Part shown: in pieces, positions 3,821 to 49,193 of the stretch | Numbering within the stretch: the stretch's first letter is position 1 | Layout: every line of letters starts with the position of its first letter | NCBI GenBank assembly: GCA_011033025.1 | Contig: WFMF01000175.1 | Location: forward strand, 290,759-354,758 | Direction: 5' to 3' | Source of the DNA: Beroe forskalii | Taxonomy: Eukaryota > Ctenophora > Nuda > Beroida > Beroidae | Length of the DNA: 64,000 bases | Notes under the pieces: generated by a model | What the model was told of the DNA's origin: nothing | Seen by the model: the letters and a program-made list of their open reading frames with translations, nothing else | Database searches by the model: none | Translations under genes and position numbers: made by a program

Positions 3821-4600
3821 TTACAACCTGCTGGTTTTGGGGGTGGTGACCACAGAGACCAGGGAGATGTCGTCCGCGAACCCTTGGGTGTCGCATGGAA
3901 TCTTATCCCTTGTGTACTCTAGAAGGTCGTTTATCATGAGGTTCCATAGGAATGGGGATAGAATCCCCCCTGGGGACACCCGCGTAGTATGGCTATGACT
4001 TTCTCCTTTCCCTGCAATTCGACTGTGGTGTGCTGGCAGCGGATCATTGACATGATCCATCTGTTCACACCCTGTGATTTGCAGTTCTTGGATAGGGCAT
4101 TGCCTATGGAGTCAAACGACACATTGTCGAACGCTCCTTCTATGTCTAGGAAAGTTCCGAGTGCCATTCCTTTGTTAAGGAGAGTCATCTCGATTTTCCT
4201 GACTAGCTTGTGGATAGCGGCCGTTGTCGAGTGGCCCTGCTTGAAACCAAATTGTTTCTTGCTGAGCCTCTCGTAAATTTTGATATCCGCTTCCATATGC
4301 CACAGTATCACCCGCTCCATCCACTTAAGGATGACGGGTGACAAGGTGATTGTCCTAAAGGACTTGGGATTCTGCAATCATCCTTCCCAGGTTTTTGGCA
4401 GAAAGATACCACTGGAGTTTCTCCATGTTTCAGGAGTGTGCCCCAATTGGTAGCTTGCTCTAGCAATGCTAATGAAAGCGTCGCTAATACTGCCCCCAAC
4501 CCTTCTGAAGCATGATAGGCCGTATCCCGTCCGGACCTGCACCGCTGATAGAGGACTGAACTCCTGCAGTGCCCTTTTCACTCCTATTCTCAGAGAATAT
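3821..4600 (-). pseudogene. LINE reverse transcriptase domain remnant
   Basis: Two overlapping minus-strand frames contain the RT blocks in order: FRTITLSPVILKWMERVI (finger), KKQFGFKQGHST, FLDIEGAFDNVSFDS (catalytic Asp), GCPQGG and GFADDISLVS (catalytic Asp pair). The shift between the GCPQGG and FADD frames at about 3935-4060 is a frame lesion. Confidence 0.85.
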
Positions 4601-9460: not shown

Positions 9461-10090
9461 GGCAACATTCCACATTTGGACGTCATTTTGGACGTCATTG
9501 CCAGACGTTGTCTGCCCCATATTGTTTGTCCTGACTCTGCGAGTCGGGGCGCGCCGCGCGAGGGGGGCCAGGCAACGCCTGGCACATGGTAAAGACAATG
9601 CGTCAGCTGACTGAGCGGTGCGCGGCACGGCGCGTCGCTCCGAAGTGTCTATCAATTGTCCTACGTTGTAGGACCTATTTTGCGCGCGCGCGAACAAACA
9701 GGGACACATAGCATGTGGCAAGTCTATCAACGATTGACAAGCAACGCCTGACAAAATTTGGAGGGTCGTGTTGCAGCTCAGACTCCCCGTGGAAAATTAT
9801 GGCGCCTTCCCCAGCACAGTGTGTTCCGTAGGGAAGCGCCTGGCGCGTACACACACCTATGAGGGCTTAGGAACACGTTCCTAAAACCGCAACGATAGCA
9901 TTTGTTTGAAATCCCACGGTGGGGCTAGCATGGGCGCGGCCGGAATATATGTGTTTACGAAGGAACACGTATAACTATTACTCCATGTTACGGAGCCTTA
10001 TTTTGCGCGCGCAAGCGCGCCTCTTCAGAGAAGAGCGCGCGCAAGCGCGAACAAACAGGGACACGTAACATGTGGTAAGTATAACTAGGT
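9460..10090. repeat. CpG-rich dispersed repeat, copy 1
   Basis: This block shares phrases with 51220-52650 and 63680-64000: caacattccacatttggacgtca, ttgccagacgttg, taggacctattttgcgcgcg, gaacaaacagggacac, gcatgtggcaag, and cacacacctatgagggcttaggaac. It is far richer in CpG than its surroundings. The phrases occur in different orders and orientations in the copies, so this is probably a mosaic of small elements. No coding capacity is seen. Confidence 0.7.
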
Positions 10091-20300: not shown

Positions 20301-23300
20301 GATGTTGGGAGTAGCCTAACATTCACTTGCATCATCGAGGGGAATCCACTGCCCAACAAGCTGAAATTCGAAAGAGATGGAGAAGTTTTCAAAGAATACG
20401 ATAGTCAAAATAGTCAAAGTGCTGGAGATGATCCTCAAATCACACGTTCAACCTACACCTTGTCCTACATAAAAATCATCAACAAGTTACAACTTTCTGA
20501 TACTTCAAAATATACTTGCTCAGGAGAGAATATACGCAATAGCACTCCTATCAAAAGTGGAGATACACAGCAAAATGTTATAGTTGTGTCTGATGTCGTT
20601 GTTACCATGACAACAAGTACAAACACTCCAGATAAGGGATCAGAAGTAACCATCACTTGTTCAGCAGTTGGAGGTTTGTTATTTGAGCAATTCTTTGTGC
20701 AATTTGTTATTTCTATTCTTAATTTATAAGACAAATAAATATATTACTTTTTTACTCACTCTATGTCAACATTTTATTGAAGAATTAATTTACTAGTAAA
20801 TTATTGATTACTGTACTGTACCATTTTCAATTGGTTGCTCAGCCTATGCAACCTGTTTTTATAAGTTAACCATACGCCTTGAATTCCAGGCAGAAGGCCT
20901 CATCTAGTACAGTTACTACACAATACCAAAGTTATTAAGTCTAACAGTGATTCTGGTTTTTGTACTGAGAAAGATAGTTCTACTCTAGAATGTATTGAAA
21001 CAATCGCAAACTTCGGTAAGTGAATGGTTTTATGACTAGACTAGATCTGACTTAGAAATAACTATAAACAATCTAAGTATTTAAAGATGTCCTGGCCATG
21101 GACATCTCACATCCATTTATGTATCGTTTTCATTTAACATCACAATTCACAGATAGTTTCTGCTATCACGTTTATTTCCTTTTCTGACTTCTTTTGTCTG
21201 TACACTCACTTCTGACTCATCTGTCATATGATTTTTACTCTCTTCTCTGAATCTGAATGGATTTATTCCATTAATTCATTTTAGGTTATCAAGACTCCGG
21301 CAATTACAAATGCTTGGCAAAAAACAGAGTGAAAAATAATGTTGAAAGAGAGGATGAAACGAATAATGAGGTTATTAATGTCTCTAAGATTGTGCAAGTT
21401 TCATCAACCCAGTCAAGGTAATTTTAATTCATTGACATTGAAATCATAGAGCACTGAGACGTTGTTTTATTTCATACCTTCTAATTATCATCAATAAATT
21501 GTCATTGCATTTTTAGTTGAAATTTATGATTTATTAATTTCTTTAACAAATTTTGATAGATCAATATTCCACATTTGATACCTGGATGTGACAATCACCA
21601 TACTCTTGCACAGCTCTGAAAATGAGATCCAATTTGGGAGTTCCCTTCCCTCACCTGTACCGTTGAGGGTGGACTAGCACCTCACAAGGTGGTGCTGTCA
21701 AAACCAAAGACTGGTAGTGATCTGACTTGGAGGAGGGATTCTAAGTAAGTTTCACCTCGTAATGGGGAGTTAAATAGACCATCAACTGTTGACATAATCC
21801 CATTTAAATGACCGTTTGCACTTGTTAATGTATGGAAAGGTTGCATGAATGTTTTAGCTTTAAAGATATGATCATTAGATAATTGTTACCAGAAACTATT
21901 TTTAATTTTAATGGCAGCTTATTTTGCAGTGACTCAGATACTCTAACTTGTTCTGGAGAGAATGTTCTGACCTGCATATACACGACAGATTCTAACTCCT
22001 ATGATGGCAGTGGTAAGTGTCAGTGAGCCCGCCGATATTACTATATTATGCTCTGCATATTGATTGTGTGATATTATCTTACATATCATGACACTCACAA
22101 AGATATTTCTATTGCAGTGACCTGTGCGCTGTGACTGTAAAAACAGTGACAATACAGTACTTATCGACTCCTTCACCATTTCATGGCATGTTGAATCTGT
22201 AATTGGAATACAATCCATATTTTCATACTCCATTATTTCACAGGAAGGTTTACCTGCACTGGATACAACGTTTTACCGGAAACTTCAAACACACAACAAA
22301 GCACTGTCAATATTGATGTCGCAGTGATAAAAAGCGTGGTGGTAACTGTAACACCGAGTTCATACGAAGTGGAATATGGCTATGGATTTATTTTTATTTT
22401 TATTTTTTTTATTTAAAACTGATTTATACTTTATTTTACAAAAACAAACATGTTCAAAATACTAGTTGTTTATTGCCCCGTTAAGAATAACGTTTTGATA
22501 TTTTAGAGTTAAAGGGGTAAAGGGGGTTTTGGGTGTAAATTTGAACAGGTTTTATTTTAAAATAGGTGGGCTGCGCAGATTGCTGGCCAACGCGCTACCC
22601 GATATATCTATAGATGATAAGATTCAGTCAAAGGCTTCAAGCCTTTGCGATCTTCGCTAGCGTTATCTTTCAACCCGCATACTTGGCTAATAAAATTTTT
22701 TAAGTTTGGATTTAAAAGACGCTTTCGTACGACATGCTTTTATATCATTCGGAAGTGAATTCCAGAACATGGAGGCTGCAATTGTTGGTTTTCTGTAATT
22801 TTTTATATTATTAGGCACATTATATTGTAAATTTCGGCCACAGCTTCTTGTGTTCATATTATATTTCGTTTCTGGTAGGAAGCTGGAAAATTTAAATTTT
22901 AAAGAATCAGGGAAATTTTCATTTGAGAAGTAATCAAATACCAATAATCCTAGATTATAATAATATAAATCTATTACCTTAAGCACTTCTAATTCGGCAT
23001 ATAGTGGATTCATGCTAGTATATTTGTTTTCTCTCTTGTCGAATTTTGGTTTTCTAAAAATTGCTCTAATAATTTTGTTTTGCGTTGCAACTAAATTTTT
23101 CAAAGAGCTCGGGATATAAGATTGATTTGCATCAGTCATTAATTTTTTTCGAAGCATCAGAACACCTCAGATAGTGTTCCCGTAGTTGAGGTGTGATTCG
23201 ACTAAACTGTGGTAAATAGTTTTTTGGTTTTTAGGTCTAGACAGTCAGCACGCCAGAAATTACCTATCATTTTGCTGATTTTACTTATAACACATTAATT

Positions 23301-26300
23301 TGGAGTTTAAAATTCAGTCTAGAGTCGATAAGAATTCGAGATATTTCACAGTATCACTGGGTGTTATTATAACCCCTTCATCAGTAATAATTGAGTCATC
23401 TAAAAATATTTAGGGCCGTATCGTGTAATTCTTGTAACGTGAAATATCCTTTTGTTTATTTCTTCAGCGGTAGGATGGCCTTCTAGCATGTAAGCTGGAT
23501 CTAGTTCATAGAGAAAGCGTGGTGCTGTGATATGCAGTTCTGTTAGGTCAATTTCGCCTTTTTCATAGACTTTGTTGGAGTATGGACCGAAAAAATTATA
23601 ATCAGTTTTATCTATATTAAGCAGTAAATTATTGACACAAACCAGTTCATTATGCATTTGAGTTCTACTTTAATTTGCCTAGTGTAAGAATTTTCATCAA
23701 TGGCAATAATCATACAAGTATCATCAGCATAAATGGATAACTTCATGTTTGTTGCGTGGATTATGTCGTTTGTAAGATAATAAATAAAATAGCACTTAAG
23801 ACTCCTCCTTGAGGAACTGCAATATTTGTTGTATATGACGAGGACTTATTGCCCTCCACCACAACATATTGCTCTCTATCTTTAGGTACGATTCAAACCA
23901 AAGCAGGGCGTTTGCTCTAATACCATAATGCTCTAATTTAGTAAGAAGTATATCGATCGACTGTGTCAAAAGCTTTGGAGATATCTAGATATACTCCTCC
24001 AACTTTTAGTTTAGTTTCAAGCCCATCAAGTGTTGCTTCCAAATAAATTGATAATAGCATGCGTGGTTGAGTGACTTTTTTCTGAAACCAAATTGAAATT
24101 TGTTCAATATTTTACTATTATCCACAAAATTGTCTAGTCGTTCACGCACAACTTTTTTTCAAGAATTTTGGAGAAAACGTTACATACTGTAATAGGTCTG
24201 AAATTTTTCTATCACGTGTTCTTTAGATTTAAAAAACAGGCGTTTGTTTACCTATTTTCAAGATCTTAGGAACATATCCGACGCTCATTGATTTGTTGAT
24301 GACATTAGCGAGTGGTCCCGATAGTTGTAGGCAATAAGCTTAATAAAAGTATTGGGTATTTTAAGGGGACCTGAGCTGTTATTTTTTTAATCGTAGTATA
24401 ATCTTTTTGTATCTCATGGGGAAACATGTATCGAGAGTCAAAAGTTCTATTCGCCGGTATTTTATCTAGATAATCTTTTAAAACTTTTTTGTTTGTTCAG
24501 GCTTTACTATTTCCTAGCTCTTTTAGGTACATTTTCAAAATGCTGGGCAAATTCGTTAGCTAATTCTTCACTATTTTCAATAATTTGGCCTATGAAATTT
24601 TTAATGTTTTTCGGCAATTTTTGACTTTTTGTTCGGTTTAATGCTAAATTAATACCTTCCCAAACTTTTTACAGTTATTTTTATGTTGTTCAAAGTATTT
24701 TTGGAAGTATATGGACTGCTTTTTTCTCTTTAACGAGGTAACTTTATTTTTTTTGGACTTTATGGTTTTCAATGTTTATTTCTGTGCTATTTTTGTTTTT
24801 AATTTTAAAAGCTCGTTTTGTTTTCTTATTTCTTTTTGTACTTCTTCATCAATCCAAGGTTTACATAGATGTCTAAGTTTTCTATTAGAAATTTGAGTTA
24901 GAGGCATGCTCGTCAAGTAACTTTTCAGTTTCAGTAATAATATTTTCAAAGCATGCCTCTATATTATTTTCGTTGTAAACCTTTTCATTCCAGTTAATCA
25001 TGTCGAAATCGGCCGTAAGTTTATCATGGTCTATTTTCCGTAAATTTCTTCTAAAGATCGCCGGCTTTTCAAGTTGCGATGGTTCTAGGTCCTTGATAAT
25101 TAAAAACGTTCCAAAATGATCACTGTTTTCGTAATTTAGGTTTCCAGCAATGCATTCATGAAAATTAGAGAAAATGGTCAATCAGAGAAATTGATTTCAC
25201 GAAGAGTGTCTTATTATCTATTTGTACTCGTGGGTAAAAAGTGTGCAATTCAAGATCATAACTGAGAAGTGTGTTAAAATATTTCATGGAAGCTTTGTTT
25301 TGTAAGATTTTTAGAAGACATATATTCATATCGCCAAGCATAATTATCTTATTATTTTTTATTCTTTTATAATTGAGATGGCTTTCAACAGTATCACAGA
25401 AATTTTGTTTTTCAGTTGTCGTTTATGCAATGTCGATAGTAACCTCCTGTGATTATTTTTTTGCTGCTATTTTTGTTCTTTATTTCTATAAATAAATAAT
25501 CACAACTCGAATTAGAACCAGTTAACTCGACCTCATTGTCATGTAATTTAGAGTAAAAATCACGCAATTCAGCGTTTTCAGTCGAGTATGCGGGCTGTTC
25601 GTCTTGCTGCAGGTTATCTAGCATTGTTCAATCCTCAATTTCGATAAGCCGACGGTTATAATATGTGTTTTCCGTTGCACAAAATCAAAATTTAGGAGTA
25701 ATGATGTCATGTTGGTTCAATGACAAGAGGTGAGGGGTATTTAATTTTAAGCTATAAGGGGTGGTGATATTGGTCAATGAAATTTGATGAAAGTATTTTC
25801 ATAAAGAGTTATTCTTGTAAGACTCAAGATATTTAAATTTGTTTGCAATAGAGCATCAAACATCAACAAAACTCTACATATAATCACACAAATATCATAG
25901 TAAATGTATAACCATGTTAAAACATTCAATATTTTCAACTTATCAAAATGCGACATTTAGATTATGCACTTAACAAAATGCACATATTGGGGTGATTTAA
26001 TATTATGGCAATATTGTAGAACATTAACTGATTGAGTCTAAATTCAGTCAACTCTCAACTTGTGTCGATAAAACTCTAAATGTGAATGAAACCCTGGTTA
26101 ACTTGTTCTTGGTTGCGCATTTATTCATATCAGATGTGTTGGAGCTATTACACCTGACAGCATGTTTAAATCTGTTTTGACTCGCACGTGACATCATTAT
26201 GATGTCGCCGTGTTTGAGTCTCAGATTATAATTTTTACACTTCAATTTGTCGTACAGTTGAAAAATCCTTTCTTGTCCCAGGGACAAACCAAGGATCCAA

Positions 26301-29300
26301 GAACTGTGTTCAATACAGTTTTCATCGTCACTGTGTAACGGAATTATACTTTCATTGCCAAAATATAGGTTGATAAGAAGTGAGTTAAAATTACAGTATG
26401 GAAAAAGGGCACGAATTCTATCATAAATGCTCGCAACAATTGCATTTTTGGTATTTTTACATGCTTCATGTGTGATATTTCCGTAAGAGTAGGGCACTGG
26501 GCCATAAAAGATTGCACGCCGTTGGTCATTTTTAAATACAAAAGTTTGAGTTGGATCATCAGCTGCAGGGTTTTCAATTTGTAAATCACTCACGTTGTAA
26601 TCTTTGAAGGGTGTATTTACAATGTGAACTCCTGGGAGAGATTCGTCGTCTCTGCAGCTGGTTATCCACTCGTTGAAATCTGAATGGCAATGGGTATCAG
26701 TTCTTTAGCAATAGATACGAGACATAATAGCAATTATTATTCAAATGTATTTCATTTCAATTCATTCACACTAATATATAAGTTATCATGATCATCAATC
26801 CTATAATTTTGACCAGATTCCCATTATTATCAAAAACAATATCAAATAGTATACATTGAGTCAGCTGTTTTGATATAACTTGGACTCCAGCTCTTGTACA
26901 TTCTTAATATACTTATGAAGGTTACCATCCGTCAGCTTCACTGTAAAATTACCACGTTGCCCTGTGTAGTAAACGAAATCCACCCTTGGATGGTTCTTGA
27001 TTTCATTCTGTATCTTAATCATTCCGGGGCACAGGGCGTGGAAAATGTTAGTACTCTTATTTTTAAACTTTGTTTTGGAATCACGGGTCATGAATTGGTC
27101 TTTTTCATGTAATCGTAAGAATTTCAAAGTGATTGAGGGTGGGTTACTGCCCCGCCCCGTCTTACCGTTCCTATGAATGGCAGAAAAGTCCTTCATGGTG
27201 AGGTTGAGGTTGGGACGGACAAACTTCAGGATCTCTAGTACTGTGTCTTGTACCCAGGTCTGCGTCTCGTCGTCTGTCGTAGGAACTCCGGTGAGTATGG
27301 CGACATCCTTGCGAGAGTATTGATCAAGTTGCACGAAGTTGTCGTTGAGCTCCATCATCTTCCTTTTAGTGTGAGTGCTGTCTTCTGTTAGCTTCCGTAC
27401 TGACTTTTGGCAATCAAACGTAGTGGAGAGATTCACTTTGATGAGCCTTGCCAATTCAGAAATCTCGGTGATTTGTCGTTCACTATGTAACACAGTCCGA
27501 GCAAAGTTGACGTCATCCACACTGCAACTGGGGAAATCCTCATTATCAGTCACATCATCAGGCGAGTTGTTGGCAGTCAAGTTGTTATCTTTAGCATTCT
27601 GTCTCGATCGTGTATACATCTCAAACTGCAAAGCGGGTACAATGTACGATATTCAGGTAAAAGCACTGTGCACAAATTCAGTGAGTCGGGCTTATCTCAA
27701 GAGATTAAACGTACAAGAATATCATATATAGATAATGAATATCATATATAGATAATCTATATATTTACTATCAACTGTAGCGCTGTTGGTGGTCGTATTC
27801 CATTCTATCTGGAGTTTTCTAAGCTTCCCTCATCTGGTGCTGCTCCACAACCGATAGCATTATACAATACAGAAACCAGTACAACCCCTAGTAATGTCGT
27901 AGTCGATACCCAGAGACAAACGTTATCCTTCACATACGACTCAGTAACTTCAGCAGACTACGATGATGCTGGGGAATACACGTGTTCTTCTAAGAACAGA
28001 GCTGCTGGAAACCAAGTGGTTGAAGATAAAGGGTCAGCAATCATTACCATCGGTACGTTTTAGTTTTAAACTCTACCAATTGAAATTGATTAAAAACATT
28101 TGGCTCTTGGGAGTATACTTTAGATTTTTTTATTCGATATTTTGATCTGATTATTGTTTCAGTGAAAGATGTAGAGATTCCACAGCCCCAAAGTATAGAC
28201 GTGGATTTTGGTTCCAGTTTCACAGTCAATTTTTCACTGAATGGTGGTCGACCCCCCTTCTCTGTAACAGTTACCAATCCTGATGGAAATGTTATATTGT
28301 CCTGGACACGATCAAGTAACAGTAACCAGTGTACAGGGACCAATGAAATGACCTGTTCTATAAGTGAAGATAAAGCTGATTACTCACATGATGGAACTTA
28401 CACAATTACTGCTAAAAACCTTGCAGCTAATAATGAAGAGAAAACTGCAACCAATACATTTACTGTGACTGTATACAAGGATGTTACAGCCTCGATCTCA
28501 CCAGGTAACCATGAAGTGAAGTGATTTGAAGTAAGGGGAGTGAAGACTGATGTGAAGTGAAGTGAAGTGAGGTAAAGTGAAGTAAATGAAGTACCTAAGT
28601 AAGGCGAAGTGAAGGCTGAGGTGAAGTGAAGTGAGTGAAGTACTACTTACTAGAGTAGGGTGAAGTGAAGTGAAGTGAATTGAAAGGAAGTGAAGAAAAG
28701 TGGAGACTGGGGTGGAGTGAAGTGAAGTGAAGATGAGACTTTGGTGAAGGGAAGTGAGTGAAGTACTAAATTTAGGCGAAGTGAAGACTCAAGTGAAGTA
28801 ATGAAGTGATGGAGACAGGAGCAAGGTGTAATAAATGAAAGACTTACTTAGGATACCTATTTTTCTCAAATCTTCATCCAATTTCAGCATTAGACAGTAC
28901 CATGACATACAAAGCAGAACAAACTATAACCTGTGTAGTTGATGGAGGCAAGCAACCCTACCAAGTGGATCTTACACTTCCCAATCTTGGTGAGAAGTTT
29001 GTTAATCTAACCTTGAGATCAGAGAGCCATATCAAACATCAGGAAATTTCTAGTAGTCTACTGTAATAATGTTCAGTTAGATTGTATAGGTTTTTAGTCT
29101 TTTTTGATAATGCAAAGTTCAATTAATTTCAATCAATGGTTGATTTACTATATGAACATTTTTGACGATTGTTATAGAATTTTATCTACTTTATAATCTC
29201 AACTTCAGGACTAAAGATCTGGAGCAGGGAAAATAGCGCTTCTTCCTCTTTGTCTTGCTCAGGAGATCATGAAGTGACATGTGAACACTCCTTTACTGCA

Positions 29301-32300
29301 GAGTATGAATCTGATGGAGATTACATTTGCAAGGGGTACAACCGTGTCAGATCATCTGCTGAAAGATACGACACAGCGAATGTTGTGCTCACTACAGTTA
29401 GGAATATTTTGCTACAGGTAGGAATATTTTGCAAGTTCAACTTACTAACTTATAATCTAGGAATGTAACAAAATGATCAGCAGCTACTGAAACTAGTTTT
29501 AACTTATTATAATATCTAGCACTTCTTACACATACCCCACAGTTAAAGCGAGCACCTCAACCCTGACATTTGATAAGAACCCTGCTGAAGTGGGTGACAC
29601 TGTCACTGTAACATGTAAAGTGGAGGGATCTCCAATGCCTGGATCTCCAAACATCATTAGAACTGCTAAAGATGGTAGCACAACCTTAATTGGAGGGTCG
29701 TGTAATGTTAGGACAGCGATAGCAAAAGAGTGTACAGCCACATTGCGTGATGTTGATCTGAGTGACAATGTGAACTATAGATGCGATGGAAGCAATGTTA
29801 TTGACGGAGTTACAAAAAGTTCATCAGATAACGAGGACTTGGTTATCGGTAGGCGATTTAAAATTATTTTTCTCTTACTCTGTTACTCTGTTATTAATCT
29901 AACTATTTGATTATTTGACAATTAAGTATGACATCCTACTTTGTTGAAATAGTATTTTATGTGACCATGAAAATATGTTTGATATCATCTTTATACCTTC
30001 TTCCCCTTCCATACTTTCCTCCATAGTTGCAATTAAATATAATACCAGCAACTTTTCAGAGCTTAGACCTGTTGCAACTCTAACACAAGAACCAGCAGAT
30101 CTGGAACTGGATGTTGGGAGTAGCCTGACATTCACTTGCATCATCGAGGGGAATCCACTGCCCAACAAGCTGAAATTCGAAAGAGAAGGAGAAGTTTTCA
30201 AAGAATACGATAGTCAAAGTGTTGGAGATGATCCTCAAATCACACGTTCAACCTACACCTTGTCCTACATAAAAACCATCAACAAGTTACAACTTTCTGA
30301 TACTTCAAAATATACTTGCTCAGGAGAGAATATACGAAATAACACACCTATCAATAGTGGAGATACTGTGAAAGATGTGATAGTTGTGTCTGATGTCGTC
30401 GTTACCATGACAACAACTACAAACACTCCAGATAAGGGATCAGAAGTAACCATCACTTGTTCAGCAGTTGGAGGTTTGTTATTTGAGCAATTCTTTGTGC
30501 AATTTGTTATTTCTATTCTTAATTTATAAGACAAATAAATATATTACTTTTTTACTCACTCTATGTCAACATTTTATTGAAGAATTAATTTACTAGTAAA
30601 TTATTGATTACTGTACTGTACCATTTCCAATTGGTTGCTCAGTCTATGCAACCTGTTTTTATAAGTTAACCATACGCCTTGAATTCCAGGCAGAAAGCCT
30701 CATCTAGTGCAGTTACTACACAATACCAAAGTTATTAAGTCTAACAGTGATTCTGGTTTTTGTACTGAGAAAGATGATTTTACTCAGGAATGTATTGAAA
30801 CAATCTCAAACTTTGGTAAGTGAATGGTTTATGACTAGACTAGATCTGACTTAGAAATAACTATAAACAATCTAAGTATTTAAAGATGTCCTGGCCATGG
30901 ACATCTCACATCCATTTATGTATCGTTTTCATTTAACATCACAATTCACAGATAGTTTCTGCTATCACGTTTATTTCCTTTCTGACTTCTTTTGTCTGTA
31001 CACTCACTTCTGACTCATCTGTCATGATTTTTACTCTCTTCTCTGAATCTGAATGGATTTATTCCATTAATTCATTTTAGGTTATCAAAACTCCGGCAAT
31101 TACAAATGCTTGGCAAAAAACAGAGTGAAAAACAATGTTGAAAGAGAGAATGAAACGAATAATGAGGTTATTAATGTCTCTAAGACTGTGCAAGTTTCAT
31201 CAACCCAGTCAAGGTAATTTTAATTCATTGACATTGAAATCATAGAGCACTGAGACGTTGTTTTTATTTCATACCTTCTAATTATCATCAATAAATTGTC
31301 ATTGCATTTTTAATTGAAATTTATGATTTATTAATTTCTTTAACAAATTTTGATAGATCAATATTCCACATTTGATACCTGGATGTGACAATCACCATAC
31401 TCTTGCACAGCTCTGAAAATGAGATCCAGTTCGGGAGTTCCCTTCCTCTCACCTGTACCGTTGAGGGTGGACTAGCACCTCACAAGGTGGTGCTGTCAAG
31501 ACCAAAGACTGGTAGTGATCTGACTTGGAGGAGGGATTCTAAGTAAGTTTCACCTCGTAATGGGGAGTTAAATAGACCATCAACTGTTGACATAATCCCA
31601 TTTAAATGACCGTTTGCACTTGTTAATGTATGGAAAGGTTGCATGAATGTTTTAGCTTTAAAGATATGATCATTAGATAATTGGTACCAGAAACTATTTT
31701 TAATTTTAATGGCGGCTTATTTTGCAGTGACTCAGATACTCTAACTTGTTCTGGAGAGAATGTTCTAACCTGCACTTACACGTCAGATTCTAACTCCTAT
31801 GATGACAGTGGTAAGTGTCAGTGAGCCCGCCGATATTACTATATTATGCTCTGCATATTGATTGTGTGATATTATCTTACATATCATGACACTCACAAAG
31901 ATATTTCTATTGCAGTGACCTGTGCGCTGTGACTGTAAAAACAGTGACAATACAGTACTTATCGACTCTTTCACCATATCGTGGCATATTGAATCTGTAA
32001 TTGGAATACAATCCATATTTTCATACTCCATTATTTCACAGGAAGGTTTACCTGCACTGGATACAACGTTTTACCGGAAACTACAAACACACAACAAAGC
32101 AGTGTCAATATTGATGTCGCAGTGATAAAAAGCGTGGATGTAACTGTAACATCGAGTTCATACGAAGTGGAATATGGCTATGGATTTACTATCAACTGTA
32201 GCGCTGTTGGTGGTCGTATTCCATTCTATCTGGAGTTTTCTAAGCTTCCCTCATCTGGTGTTGCTCCACAACCGATAGCATTATACAATACAGACACCAG

Positions 32301-43248: not shown

Positions 43249-44224
43249 TTTTTCCCTCCCCATTGGCCTTTTTAGCTTTTTGTGAATACAAAAAGGCAAA
43301 TGAGAGGGTTGGCAGAGATCGTGGTTTGGGAAGATGAGAATAGGGATATGTGTATATCAGGTCCTGATTTGCAATACAACTACTGTAATTTCTGGAAAGT
43401 GCCCGGATTGCTCCTTTATAATATCAGTCGCGAAAATGTCCCTCCCTCCGTCCGTCCCTCCGTCCGTCCTTCCGTCCGTCCCCTCATCACAAATCTTCAA
43501 AATCACGAATTTCATCATCATTGGCTGTCGGTTGTCAAAACTAAAGTCTGACTTGGTCCATCCGTGGAAAATGCTCAAATTCTCTAAAATTATGATAAAT
43601 TCTAAATTGAAGGGCTGTTGAAGAATTCGTGACTTAAAATCTTAGGAGTGAGTTGGGCTATGGATTGAGGGATAAGATGATAAGCTGCGGTTCTCAATTA
43701 GTTTTAGTACCAATCTGTATCACTATTCGACTGTCTACTGAATTCGACTAAGTTCAAAAAATACGGTGGGTCGATGTGATTTGTGAAAGACGAATGATTC
43801 TTTTCGGAACGAGAGACAGCATTGAAACAGAAAGCATGAAAATTGAATTTTGAAGATCAGATGAAAAGTGACATCAACAGTCAAGAAAATACAGCGCGTG
43901 AACAAACGGTTACACAATCTGATGCGAAACGTAAACGAATTCAACGAAATGGCGCGAAATCTACAACGAACTGATTACAACAACTTGGTACGTAAGAACG
44001 CGCGCGCAAGAATTTCAGAAGAAATGGCACGTGCCAATGCATGTTCTCGGTGGTCGCGCGCAGCATTGGCGCAATATTTATACTCATACTAGGAGTACCT
44101 GTTGTATAATCATGCTAAGGTTCCATCAAGCACCGCCGGGGAGGGAAATTAAGCGCCTGCATACGGGTACATCCCACAAACAAGAATTGAAGAATCAAGC
44201 CCGCTGCAGGCGCAATTCTTGTTG
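43249..44224 (+). repeat. Left arm of a large inverted repeat
   Basis: About 976 bases matching 48269-49193 in reverse complement, with small indels. The outer tip is ttttttccctccccattggcc followed by a short ctttttagctttttg/caaaaagg stem. The inner tip is a hairpin: caagaattg...caattcttg around ccgctgcagg. A ccctccgtccgt microsatellite lies near 43440-43475. An open frame (43868-44092) is interrupted by stops in the other arm, so it is probably not a gene. Confidence 0.88.
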
Positions 44225-46200
44225 ACTATGGAAAGATCCCTAAAAACCTGATCGGATCGCCCAAAGATCCCGCCCAGATCCGGAGTGGACCGGATCTGAG
44301 ATCAGGTCGGTTCCTAGTTATTCATACTTTTATACGACTCAATACGATTGAAAATTTAACATTTGATAGTCCTACAATGATATTTTACATGATATTGAAC
44401 GAAGTAATTTAAGTATTTTTTCCCTCCTCCAATCGGCTTTTTTTGCAGAAAAAGGCATTGAGTTGGGTTAGAAAAGGCAAGTTTTGAAAGTTCTCAGAAA
44501 GTTTGTCCATACTACCTCTACTGTCAAAGAAATGATAACTGTATTAATGATGTTCGTGATTGTTCTTTAGTTGACGGCCGACAGGGTTAGGATGGAAATA
44601 AACAAATAAAGCGCTCGTGAAATCTCATAAGAAAACAAGCGAAATTTTTATCCTTTTTGATTTTTATCGCTTTCAGGTACACTGAATTCTCTCCTGAATA
44701 TGTTGACATGGATAGTGGATACCCTGCATTATGAAGAAATGGTAATTACCTAATTAGTTAGTTAGATTCGTTATTACTTTCTTTCCTTGATAAGTAAAGG
44801 GTTAATCGGCCCACCGACAAGTGCGCACATAAGAATCTATTTCCCACGGTCTAACAGGGTGGCTTGTCAATGATTTGAGCTGAGTGAGCACTTCAGATGC
44901 TGAAAACGACAACTGCGCACATTGCAGCACAGCCAAGTCAGAATCTGATCCAAACTACAACAAACGCTGCCCCACCATACGTGCAGCCACAGTGTCCATG
45001 CGAGGTCATGATGGGGACTTTGGCATGCGAGGTCATGATGGGTTAGGTGAAGATCGACTCACGTGATGTAGCTCATAGCTTCAGCGTATCCGGTATCATA
45101 TGAGAGGAACTGGAAGGGTTACATCATAGCTCATAGCTTCCTGTGATATCTTAGATATGCATGTCTACTTGGTTAGGTTATCTGAGATAAGAGAGAAAGC
45201 TCGTCAAGGTAGATAGATATGAGAGGTAATGCGGTTGTTTTCAGCAAGTTCATCACACGCCACACAGAACGTTGAAACAGAAGCCCTCGCCTTCGCTACT
45301 TCAGCCTCAGGGCCAATGGTATATTGGTATGACCCCTGCCAAGAAACGCAAGCCTTGACAGTAAAACCTGACCTGATCCCAGAGTTGAATCTTTGAATGT
45401 GCGCACTTGTCGTTTCAGATGCAGCCGGTTTATCATCCGGATTGTATGCATTAATCAGTGCAATTAACAATGTTGCCCCAGGCCAATTGTTAATCGACAC
45501 GATTAATGCATTAAATTCGGATGATAGACACTATTTAACCATGCCCCAAACGCTTTATGGACTTAGATGGACCAAATCCACGAGATTTTGTTTGTGGTTA
45601 TTCGGGGGAAGGATTAAATTGACCCTCATCACCCGGAAGGAACTCGTCAAAAGGACGGAAAAGGGTAAAAAGGTGGTTAAAAGATTCTACTTTAGTACTT
45701 TTGTTCTGAGGCCCAAGATTAGACATATTTTCCATCAGAAAAAAATGCTTAATCGAGTGGTGGGGACAACAAAAATCCAACAAAATAATTTTAGATCATT
45801 CTTTTACTAAGCTTTTGCTGCCCTTTTTGCTACCCTTTTTACTATATTCGCTTTTTTTACTGATTCTACCGCTCATAGCAGTAAGACTGTTTCTCCTTGA
45901 TTCTTCATTGTAATATAACTTGTAATATGATCATAATATGATCATACTCCCGGAAATACAAATAAACAAAAACTGGAATCCATGACGTGGCATCATAAAC
46001 CATCTACTAATATCCAATTTATGCACAATCCACGTCGTGAACTGGAATGTTGCTCGTAACACGTGCTATAATACTTCTGCCGAACCTGCTTCGGTACTAC
46101 TAAATGTTTAGTTTCCTGTTGGCCTGTGGGAAATAAATTCTTATCAATGCACTTGCCGGTAGGCTGTTCTGTGGTTAATGGTTAAATCATAGCTTGACCT
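44225..46200. other. Interior of the large inverted repeat, first part
   Basis: A partial third copy of the arm tip (ttttccctcctccaatcggc, then aaaaaggcattgag) is at 44419-44470. The duplicated phrases catgcgaggtcatgatggg (44998-45041) and catagctcatagctt occur near 45070-45140. The frame at 45397-45810 has no domain. No supported gene is seen. Confidence 0.45.
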
Positions 46201-47000
46201 CAATCAACAGAATCTTTATTATTACCCTCCCGTGGCTCAAACTCCAGTGTGATAATTATCGATATATCACTCCTTTATAGGACTACTGAACAGTGGCGGA
46301 ATAATAGAGCAGAATATCGTTAAATAAATTGTTGATTTTATGAAGGAGCACTTAAAAATCTATAAAAACGTTGAATTCAGACGAGGGTTTATATGTTTCG
46401 AATGACTTTGCAAACGATATAGCAGATGCCAGACTTTGATTTTATGAGGGTATTTAGGGGTTTTCATTTATGCATGATTTTAAAATATCGAAGTGCCAAT
46501 GTAAATACAATTTTGTAAATAATATTTTGTTTTCAAAAAAAATTCAGACGAGGGTCGTCAGACCCGAGTGGTACTGTTTTAGCGGGTAATAATACAATTA
46601 ACAAACTCATGGATCGTGTGATATCGAAAATTGTCAAACTTGGCTGACGCCTCGTGTGATAATTTTCGATATAACACTCCCATTCGTTTGTTAATCGTAC
46701 ATTATTTACTTGTAATGAAGTTGAAGATATAATGGCTGTTGCTGATATACAATTGAAATAAAAGTCAGAATATGAAACTTCCGCTCTCATTCTCGTCGCC
46801 CATTTTCAATTCTGGTCGATCAAAGATGAAAAAGGAAGAAAAAACCTGCATCCACAGCCGTGAACCGATAAACCCTATAGGTTTAGTCCCTCCCCGACCC
46901 AGCAGATAACAGCGGGTAATCAAATTAATTGTTATAAACGAGACAAAATCGTGTTGTTATATTTTGATGTAATAAAATGTCAAGATGAGTTCGAATACGT
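46200..47000. mobile_element. Foldback/MITE-like remnant
   Basis: The word cgtgtgatatcgaaaattgtc with aattaacaaactcatgg (46600-46640) is mirrored at 46650-46710 as cgtgtgataattttcgatataacactcc with gtttgttaat. Related cagtgtgataattatcgatatatcactcc is at 46240-46275. The cagacgagggt words at 46378 and 46545 are direct repeats. No ORF is seen. Confidence 0.5.
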
Positions 47001-47374
47001 TGGCTATATATTTTGTGACCCATACTCCCACGCTGTACCACATTTTTATATTGTTTTATGTAGCACGCGATGTCAGAAATCTATATCCATATGTGACAGT
47101 AGCGCGTAACGTACGTATATTACAGCAGAAAGCCTGCCAAAGTTCCCCATAACGGCGGCCGACGGTGAATCTTTGGTTAAGGACAGGGACTTATGGGGCA
47201 ATTCTTCTCGAACGAGCACCCAGTCTCAAGGTTTTCTGTTTTGAGCACATCCTCATCGTTCATGTTCATTGAGCCACGGTGAACTTCTGTTTTCTCCCAA
47301 CATCCTACACTGGTAAAGCATGCACATCATGCCAGCCAAAGCCAACTTCAACCAAAGTCAACTTCAAAGTCCAA

Positions 47375-47375
47375 T

Positions 47376-47403
<28 letters not shown>
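47375..47403. repeat. (CA)n microsatellite
   Basis: A run of about 14 CA dinucleotides. Confidence 0.95.
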
Positions 47404-47406
<3 letters not shown>

Positions 47407-47759
47407 CTTACCTGTCCATTCTCCATTAACCAGTCCAGTCACCACGACTCCCTCATCGGCTCAGCCCTGGGGTTAGGAAGGATTCTGGCATACGTGCCCT
47501 TATCCTGACGTGCAACCTATGCTAGACACCTTAGCCGGGCCACGTCCACCTTTTGGTGCTCCCCCCATTTACCTGCCCCATTGGGTTGACAGTTGATCTC
47601 GGGCAGTTGTGGTATCCCTACCAACCATGTCCACCAGTTGTTACTGAACACATGCTCTGTCAGTGACAACTCCTCATTGTGAACTCTACAGCCTCATCTG
47701 CTACATGGTCAGGTGTAGCAATATGGCTGCTAGAGGTCATCCTCAACCTAAATAACCCA

Positions 47760-47870
47760 TCATCACAAAGACACTCTCAACCCACAAAGACACTCCCCAC
47801 CCACAAAGACACTCCCCTCCTGCAAAGACACCCCCACCTGCAAAGACACCCTTCACACCACCCCTCCACT
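47760..47870. repeat. cacaaagacactcccc minisatellite
   Basis: Five to six imperfect copies of a 17-19 base unit (cacaaagacactccccacc) in a C-rich stretch. Confidence 0.8.
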
Positions 47871-48268
47871 TGAACCTTCTCCACCTCTCCTCCTCCCCTG
47901 CTGGGGATCATCTGGACCGCTTGAGAACAGAGATCAGGTAATAAACAGTGGTGTGCACAATTATTTACAATTGATATGGCACCGCCTGAACATGGGCTCA
48001 AAATGAATCACCTTGGTGGTTCACTATAATCTTATGTCTTATTTGGGCGCGTACGCAGATTTTAGTTTGTCCATGTTTTGATAGGTGAAAGATCGGAAAA
48101 AGATCTGAAAGAGTACGGAAATAGATCTGAAAGAGTACGGAAATAATATTATGCAATAATGAAAAGAATTTTTGAGATATCCTGACCCCAGTGTCCAAAA
48201 TTTATGTTTTATCCCAAATTATCATCTCTCACCAGCCCTTATTGGTCAATTCAAGCGTTATTATTACT

Positions 48269-49193
48269 CAACAAGAATTGCGCCTGCAGCGGGCTTAATT
48301 CTTCAATTCTTGTTTGTGGGATGTATGCAGGCGCTTAATTTCCCTCCCCGGCGGTGCTTGATGGAACCTTAGCATCATTATACAACAGGTACTCCTAGTA
48401 GGAGTATAAATATTGCGCCAATGCTGCGCGCGACCATCGAGAACATGCATTGGCACGTGCCATTTCTTCTAAAATTCTTGCGCGCGCGTTCTTACGCACC
48501 AAGTTGTTTTAATCAGTTCAGTGTAGATTTCGCGCCATTTCGTTGAATTCGTTTACGTTTCGCATCAGATTTTGTAACCGTTTGTTCACGCGCTGTATTT
48601 TCTTGACTGTTGATGTCACTTTTCATCTGGTCTTCAAAATTCAATTTTAATGCTTTCTGTTTCAATGCTGTCTCTCGTTCCGAAAAGAATCATTCGTCTT
48701 TCACAAATCACATCGACCCACCGTATACAGTCGAATAGTGATACAGATTGGTACGAAAACGAATTGAGAACAGAAGCTTATCATCTTATCCCTCAATCCA
48801 TAGCCCAACTCACTACTAAGATTTTAATTCACCAATTCTTCAACAGCCCTTCAATTAAGAATTGATCATAATTTTAGAGAATTTGAGCATTTTCCACGGA
48901 TGGACCAAGTCAGACTTTAGTTTTGACAACCGACAGCCAATGATTATGAAATTTGTGATTTTGAAGATTTGTGATGAGGGGACGGACGGAAGGACGGACG
49001 GAGGGAGGGACATTTTCGCGACTGATATTATAAAGGAGTAATCCGGGCACTTTCCAGAAATTACAGTAGTTGTATTGCAAATCAGGACCTGATATACACA
49101 TATCCCTATTCTCACCTTCCCAAACCACGATCTCTGCCAACCCTCTCATTTGCCTTTTTGTATTCACAAAAAGGCCATTGGGGAGGGAAAAAA
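48269..49193 (-). repeat. Right arm of a large inverted repeat
   Basis: Reverse-complement partner of 43249-44224, slightly shorter, with the same tip hairpins. Both arms keep the same outward order. They are therefore either the long terminal inverted repeats of one 5.9 kb element or two independent insertions of one repeat facing opposite ways. Confidence 0.88.

What the first reader, a model, noticed from the sequence alone, without database searches (positions are those of the whole stretch)
26048..26725. AlkB-type oxygenase ORF carried inside a LINE retrotransposon
Seen: between ORF1 and the endonuclease/RT ORF2 of one non-LTR element, on the same strand, lies a roughly 225-codon ORF. 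It has the full AlkB signature: H-x-D in PLHSDDE, distal His in NRFKHAV, and R-x5-R in RVSFTFR. It has its own ATG and a single early stop, so it looks like a third gene of the element rather than trapped host DNA. Known: AlkB proteins demethylate nucleic-acid bases, and some RNA viruses carry AlkB domains. Inference: the element may protect or re-activate its RNA or cDNA by removing base methylation, a possible counter-defence. I do not know of a described LINE lineage with this layout.
Basis: partly seen in the sequence, partly recalled or inferred. Interest (0 to 1): 0.92.

Follow-up and report, generated by a model that had tools for sequence, protein, structure and literature searches.

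The report
Jumping gene carrying a demethylase enzyme
A family of self-copying DNA elements in this animal genome carries, as one of its own genes, an enzyme of a kind that strips methyl groups off RNA and DNA bases, which may help the element copy its damaged or marked RNA back into DNA.

Summary
Confirmed and larger than reported. The minus-strand ORF at 26704-26048 is an AlkB oxygenase (PF13532, E=1e-17) with its catalytic residues, inside one clean 5,372-bp LINE insertion in an Ig-repeat gene. It is not trapped host DNA. In the window's genome (216 Mb; probably a ctenophore, my inference), 100 of 165 AlkB hits have a LINE endonuclease 0.3-6 kb downstream on the same strand, none downstream on the opposite strand. 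Two layouts occur: a separate AlkB ORF between an L1-type ORF1 and ORF2 (the window's), and ORF1 fused as coiled coil-AlkB-SGNH esterase. AlkB and RT divergence correlate, AlkB is under purifying selection, and relatives occur in other public contigs. The domain is ALKBH2/3-type, not the ALKBH5 (m6A) type of orchid Gypsy elements. Most likely it removes m1A/m3C-type methylation from the element's RNA or cDNA so its RT can read through; that function is inferred, not shown. The window copy is defective, and some related LINEs lack AlkB. Nine searches of open papers listed no LINE with AlkB.

The parts
22391..27762 (-). LINE insertion, 5,372 bp, reading right to left
   Evidence: Two sister Ig-repeat units (sites at 32170 and 36592) show the site without the insert; repeat spacing 9,796-9,809 with the insert against about 4,420-4,426 without
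22386..22390 (.). Probable target-site duplication ATTTA, left copy
   Evidence: 5 bp, so microhomology is not excluded
27763..27767 (.). Probable target-site duplication ATTTA, right copy
26861..27652 (-). ORF1, 263 codons, LINE-1 ORF1p-like; first ATG at 27619
   Evidence: profile A6 against PDB 2ykp/2yko E=5.5e-4, the top four hits are LINE-1 ORF1 proteins; no Pfam family at E 1
26705..26725 (-). Upstream ATG followed after five codons by TAA (26707-26705)
26048..26704 (-). AlkB (ALKBH2/3-type 2OG-Fe(II) oxygenase) ORF, 218 codons plus TGA; His124 (26335-26333), Asp126 (26329-26327), His181 (26164-26162), Arg204 (26095-26093), Arg210 (26077-26075)
   Evidence: PF13532 E=9.9e-18; these residues invariant in a 14-sequence alignment
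25074..25627 (-). Remains of the ORF2 endonuclease; 363 bp missing at about 25528 compared with copy L010
22690..24629 (-). Remains of the ORF2 reverse transcriptase and C-terminus, interrupted by many frameshifts
   Evidence: 96.9% nucleotide identity to L010 over the 3' 3.2 kb
22391..22414 (-). AT-rich 3' tail of short repeats (end approximate); L010 ends in a different short repeat after the same ...AAATCAGTTT

Best explanation
A diverse group of endonuclease-type LINEs in this genome, with relatives in other public sequence sets, encode an ALKBH2/3-type demethylase as part of their own equipment. It is either a separate ORF between ORF1 and ORF2 (window type) or a domain of a multidomain ORF1 protein, ahead of an SGNH esterase. 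SHOWN by sequence: it belongs to the element, keeps its catalytic residues, is under purifying selection, has diverged together with the RT and in many elements sits inside the ORF1 protein. INFERRED: it travels in the element's ribonucleoprotein and removes methyl groups on the base-pairing face (m1A, m3C) from the element's RNA, and perhaps from first-strand cDNA, so that target-primed reverse transcription is not stopped by them. Confidence that it is an element gene: about 0.97; in this mechanism: about 0.45.
Against: No activity, expression or RNA-methylation data exist here. The window copy and L010 share an early stop and lack an ordinary AlkB start. Relatives with the same ORF1 type (L036, L039, L043) show no AlkB, so it is not essential to the wider group. 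65 of 165 AlkB hits show no endonuclease downstream with the three queries used. ALKBH2/3-type sequence does not fix the substrate. AlkB changes faster than RT (67-72% against 87-88% identity between L013 and L018/L022/L016), which could also mean an arms race with host factors.
Confidence: 0.55

Rival explanations
1. Epitranscriptomic counter-defence: the LINE AlkB erases m6A (or another regulatory mark) from element RNA, so that host RNA-modification pathways do not silence or degrade it, as proposed for the orchid Ty3/Gypsy AlkB.
For: Direct precedent: an orchid LTR element carries an ALKBH5-like ORF with demethylase activity in vitro (PMC9289625, abstract and passages). AlkB evolves faster than the RT.
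Against: The LINE domain is ALKBH2/3-type; ALKBH5 matches only weakly by sequence (E 0.4, 0.009). No m6A data for this host.
Confidence: 0.22
2. DNA-directed role: the enzyme clears alkylation or 6mA from single-stranded DNA at the nick, from cDNA, or from chromosomal copies, helping insertion or re-activation.
For: The closest folds are ALKBH2 on dsDNA and ALKBH3 on ssDNA.
Against: In many elements it is part of the ORF1 protein, which in other LINEs binds the RNA (recalled); nothing here ties it to chromatin.
Confidence: 0.15
3. Structural use only: the AlkB fold serves as an RNA-binding module of ORF1, replacing the RRM, and catalysis is incidental.
For: Esterase-type ORF1 proteins known in 2013 lacked any structured RNA-binding domain (PMC3905857, sections 12-13 read); AlkB could fill that gap.
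Against: The catalytic and co-substrate residues are invariant in 14 divergent sequences, and the window type has a separate L1-type ORF1 as well.
Confidence: 0.06
4. Trapped host gene or chance neighbour of a LINE.
For: The genome does hold an ALKBH3-like gene without a LINE endonuclease hit downstream (C231:98311, 41% to human ALKBH3 over 155 residues).
Against: Empty sister sites, about a hundred AlkB-endonuclease pairs with the same order and strand, and AlkB/RT co-divergence.
Confidence: 0.01

Closest known systems
CR1/L2-lineage LINEs with SGNH-esterase ORF1 (ZfL2-1; type IV ORF1)
   Same: Coiled coil followed by an esterase in ORF1, endonuclease+RT in ORF2; a profile holding the fused ORFs matches PDB 4c1b, named ORF1-encoded protein, at 3.4e-4 (that 4c1b is the ZfL2-1 esterase is recalled)
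   Different: An AlkB domain lies between the N-terminal part and the esterase; no ORF1 domain tabulated for 448 Jockey-superfamily elements is AlkB (PMC4120745, Results part 1 read; its full text holds the word AlkB 0 times)
Type II (LINE-1 ORF1p/Transposase_22) LINEs of the L2/CR1 lineages, in particular L2 subgroup 5 with a PHD at the ORF2 start
   Same: ORF1 of the window type is LINE-1 ORF1p-like; L012 has a similar ORF1 and a weak zinc-finger-like match (C1_1, below cut-off) at the start of ORF2
   Different: A separate AlkB ORF lies between ORF1 and ORF2
Orchid (Phalaenopsis) Ty3/Gypsy elements with an AlkB ORF
   Same: A retrotransposon carrying an extra AlkB-family ORF (PMC9289625, abstract and passages)
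   Different: LTR element, plant, ALKBH5-like with in-vitro m6A demethylase activity; here a LINE, animal (inferred), ALKBH2/3-like, several diverged lineages
AlkB domains of Flexiviridae and other plant RNA viruses
   Same: AlkB carried by an RNA-based replicon (PMC544882, start of abstract seen in the listing)
   Different: No relationship tested; that those are domains of viral replicases is recalled
Human ALKBH3 and ALKBH2
   Same: Best sequence and fold matches
   Different: About 26-30% identical in the fold alignments of relative P0003 and on a separate, fully supported branch from the LINE AlkBs sampled

Membership tests
AlkB family (2OG-Fe(II) oxygenase, PF13532) | Profile match above curated cut-off | tested here: met
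   65.5 bits against 31.2
AlkB family (2OG-Fe(II) oxygenase, PF13532) | H-x-D...H metal triad and R-x5-R arginines | tested here: met
   Present in the window and invariant in 14 sequences; in 48 sequences the last Arg is nearly invariant, 90% or more; roles of the residues recalled
AlkB family (2OG-Fe(II) oxygenase, PF13532) | AlkB fold | tested here: met
AlkB family (2OG-Fe(II) oxygenase, PF13532) | Oxidative demethylase activity on nucleic acid | not testable with these tools
   needs enzymology
ALKBH2/3 subfamily | Closer to ALKBH2/3 than to other AlkB homologues | tested here: met
   E 2.5e-27 and 1.5e-23 against 5e-9 for ALKBH8, 7e-9 for E. coli AlkB and 0.4 for ALKBH5, same order with the 48-sequence profile except ALKBH8; PDB sequences only, no full AlkB-family tree
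Non-LTR retrotransposon (LINE), endonuclease type | ORF2 with APE-type endonuclease and RT | tested here: met
   RVT_1 4.6e-36 and Exo_endo_phos 1.8e-6 in L023; 1.1e-32 and 1.2e-5 in L013; window copy by homology to L010, itself broken
Non-LTR retrotransposon (LINE), endonuclease type | No long terminal repeats; target-site duplication; 5'-truncated copies | tested here: met
   No terminal direct repeat of 25 bp or more; probable 5-bp TSD; L029, L030 and L031 match only from inside AlkB onwards, as 5' truncation would give
CR1/L2 lineage | RT placed in the CR1/L2 part of a reference RT tree | not tested
   No reference LINE RTs were available; the suggestion rests on ORF1 types, the esterase match and the short-repeat 3' ends
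Esterase (type IV) ORF1 | SGNH hydrolase fold in ORF1 | tested here: met
Orchid Gypsy-type AlkB | ALKBH5-like domain in an LTR element | tested here: not met
   ALKBH2/3-like and no terminal direct repeats

The most novel reading that the evidence does not exclude
An ancient animal LINE group carries its own nucleic-acid repair enzyme that works on its RNA and cDNA during target-primed reverse transcription, the first LINE-encoded template-repair activity. In the fused form one ORF1 protein combines an N-terminal coiled coil (with a zinc-finger-like stretch in some), a base demethylase and a lipid-esterase fold.
Probability: 0.42. Interest if true: 0.92.

Novelty: new variant of a known kind. 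Interest (0 to 1): 0.82.

Why it matters
LINEs are a major class of animal mobile DNA and their extra domains are few and well catalogued. An enzyme type that edits base methylation, under purifying selection in a diverse LINE group with at least 100 AlkB-endonuclease pairs in one genome, points to RNA or cDNA base methylation as a real obstacle or control point for LINE copying. It makes that testable: the same cassette can be compared with and without its metal ligands. It also gives the esterase-type ORF1, for which no structured RNA-binding domain was known in 2013 (PMC3905857), a nucleic-acid-acting partner domain.

Tried and rejected
Trapped-host-gene reading: rejected by the empty sister sites and the genome-wide order and strand test.

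A single-family view (window type only): rejected once ORF1-fused AlkB turned up. The claim that all relatives carry AlkB: rejected. Among ten fetched ORF1-type loci L033-L042, six have an AlkB match near ORF1 (L033, which is the window itself, L034, L035, L038, L040, L042); L036, L037, L039 and L041 gave none (L037 and L041 are short ORF1 matches). No-filter re-scans of L036, L039 and a further locus L043 gave nothing below E 0.2, with L038 and L042 as positive controls.

Selection test, against as well as for: of 20 AlkB pairs, 3 had saturated dS; the other 17 ranged 0.058-0.489. The two highest (0.375, 0.489) come from pairs with dS under 0.04, where the ratio is noisy, but 0.319 and 0.270 occur at dS about 0.11.

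Esterase: the L013 esterase region alone found no significant esterase in the PDB (only spurious matches at 0.013-0.021, then 2hsj at 0.49), and the 48-sequence profile found none at E 1; the support is the 14-sequence profile (2hsj 3.2e-8, 4c1b 3.4e-4), weak Pfam matches below cut-off and the fold. Pfam called no PHD in the fused ORF1s, only weakly in ORF2 of L023.

Dead ends: IMG/VR gave no relative. The AlkB-only model of the window protein was poor. The organism could not be named; 'ctenophore' rests only on a very divergent, 20% GC cox1 read with TGA=Trp and AGR=Arg and is my inference. In one search the printed line 'monophyletic: False' was taken after re-rooting; the Newick string shows the four host-type sequences as one group with support 1.000. 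No LINE esterase entry appeared among the 50 fold rows shown; that absence says nothing.

Literature: nine searches of the open PMC library listed no LINE with AlkB. I saw titles and abstract starts of the rows listed, which for searches are only part of the papers found; two searches were aimed at context (ctenophore elements, viral AlkB). Repbase Reports and subscription journals were not searched. For PMC9289625, PMC12140624 and PMC8141815 I saw abstract and/or passages; for PMC4120745 outline and Results part 1 of 2; for PMC3905857 outline with abstract and sections 12-13; other papers only as listings.
Full report
OBSERVATION. The reported ORF lies on the minus strand. From the stop codon at 26707-26705 the frame is open for 218 codons (26704-26051) and ends in TGA at 26050-26048. 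It is an AlkB-family oxygenase: PF13532 at E=9.9e-18, 65.5 bits against a cut-off of 31.2, human ALKBH3 the nearest PDB sequence at 3.2e-10. After that stop there is no in-frame ATG before residue 170; copy L010 shares the stop, while copy L009 has a clean ATG start.

THE INSERTION. The window holds a tandem Ig-repeat gene with a unit of about 4.42 kb; the unit interrupted at 22.4-27.8 kb is longer by about 5.38 kb. Comparison with the two intact sites (32170, 36592) gives an insert of 5,372 bp (22391-27762) flanked by a probable 5-bp duplication ATTTA. There are no terminal direct repeats of 25 bp or more. Read on the minus strand the insert carries ORF1 (profile hit to LINE-1 ORF1p, 2ykp, at 5.5e-4, the top four hits being LINE-1 ORF1 proteins; no Pfam family), AlkB, then broken endonuclease and RT. 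Against its nearest copy, L010, it is 98.9% identical over the 5' 2.2 kb and 96.9% over the 3' 3.2 kb, with 363 bp missing in the endonuclease and many short, largely homopolymer indels concentrated in the 3' part. Copies L009, L010, L029, L030 and L031 all break at that same point of the comparison, which fits a deletion in the window copy; part of the indels may be poor polishing.

GENOME-WIDE. The window's genome is held (216 Mb, 1,134 contigs). The AlkB ORF gave 150 scored matches of 187 candidates and the Pfam model 150 of 189, so counts are lower bounds. In one search, 140 of 150 have no stop in the matched stretch (hand count), and 99 of 150 lie in frames of 400 aa or more. I searched the genome with three LINE endonucleases (264 merged places) and compared coordinates. 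Of 165 AlkB hits, 100 have an endonuclease 0.3-6 kb downstream on the same strand (median distance 1,539 bp); 0 have one downstream on the other strand, 1 upstream on the same strand, 4 upstream on the other. One further hit was left out by mistake and would make it 101 of 166. The other 65 were not sorted; they include a likely host gene (C231:98311) and may include truncated copies and families beyond the reach of these queries. Seen from the other side, 55 of 129, 25 of 75 and 64 of 142 endonuclease places of the three types have an AlkB hit upstream.

SELECTION AND HISTORY. The H-x-D, H and R-x5-R residues are invariant in 14 divergent sequences. AlkB dN/dS is 0.106 (L018-L022), 0.088 (L024-L027) and 0.215 (window-L009) at dS 0.63-1.25; over the 17 of 20 pairs with unsaturated dS it runs 0.058-0.489. 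RT pairs run 0.027-0.076 (six of seven; one saturated). AlkB and RT distances of 17 elements correlate (r=0.776, 135 of 136 pairs, 0 of 5000 permutations); several of the 17 are near-identical copies. In a tree of 36 sequences the LINE-type AlkBs are split from ALKBH2, ALKBH3, the ALKBH3-like gene of this genome and a JGI-named AlkB (P0054) with support 1.000, which fits one acquisition followed by long co-divergence, with only four outside references. Relatives in public contigs without organism names: two at 81% and 50% to the window ORF, 46 for the fused type and nine for the stand-alone type, two of them those same two. P0001 (81% over the full length) has no full-length counterpart of that identity in the window's genome, so the window type very likely occurs in another organism; for the others the source may be another organism or unlisted copies.

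NOT UNIVERSAL. More distant relatives with the same ORF1 type show no AlkB downstream: L043 (ORF1 and endonuclease with about 1 kb between and no AlkB signal), L036 and L039. The domain was therefore gained after, or lost within, the wider group.

HOW IT MAY WORK. The profile and fold place the domain with ALKBH2 and ALKBH3, enzymes crystallised on 1meA- and 3mC-DNA, not with ALKBH5. Methyl groups such as m1A and m3C interfere with common reverse transcriptases; the R2 RT of a cloning protocol (R2 is a non-LTR element: recalled) is impeded by m1A, and AlkB treatment relieves this (PMC12140624, passages). The simplest inference is that the LINE brings its own enzyme to clear its RNA, and perhaps cDNA, for full-length target-primed reverse transcription. 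Erasing a regulatory mark such as m6A, as proposed for orchid Gypsy elements (PMC9289625), and a DNA-directed role remain open. Nothing here tests activity.

NOVELTY. A survey of 448 Jockey-superfamily elements tabulates PHD, RRM, CCHC, Transposase_22, coiled-coil, zinc-finger/leucine-zipper and esterase domains in ORF1, no AlkB (PMC4120745). Nine searches of the open library listed no LINE with AlkB (several listings seen in part); the nearest precedent found is the orchid Gypsy element. I therefore call it a new variant of a known kind: a LINE architecture that I could not find described. The host is probably a ctenophore, judged only from its cox1.

Noticed in passing
window 19.7-38.5 kb: Tandem array of about 4.42-kb units with Ig-like exons (by eye; no Pfam result obtained, one search failed), many blocks 93-100% alike: a recently expanded host repeat gene.
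   Followed up: partly
window 43276-49173: Large inverted repeat (arms of about 0.9 kb in pieces, 96-98% complementary, about 4 kb between); the only ORF of 120 codons or more in the region is 137 codons.
   Followed up: partly
window 6.1-7.7 kb: AT-rich palindrome-like structure with imperfect arms.
   Followed up: no
window 11.4-13.4 kb and 60.4-60.6 kb: Minisatellites with units of about 10 bp (GTGGAGNCTA-like) and 21 bp.
   Followed up: no
G000:C847:366411 and G000:C225:193073: AlkB hits inside very long open frames (2,026 and 1,169 codons): possibly single-ORF versions of the element.
   Followed up: no
G000:C1134 (L032): Contig with a very divergent cox1, 20% GC, probably mitochondrial.
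   Followed up: partly
window 22.7-25.4 kb: ORF2 frameshifts are largely homopolymer-length differences and cluster in the 3' part of the element, as in an unpolished long-read assembly.
   Followed up: partly
L010 5' end; window 27700-27762: The 5' end of the element consists of short tandem repeats of an ATTATCTATATATGATATTCTC-like unit, in different copy number in the two copies.
   Followed up: no
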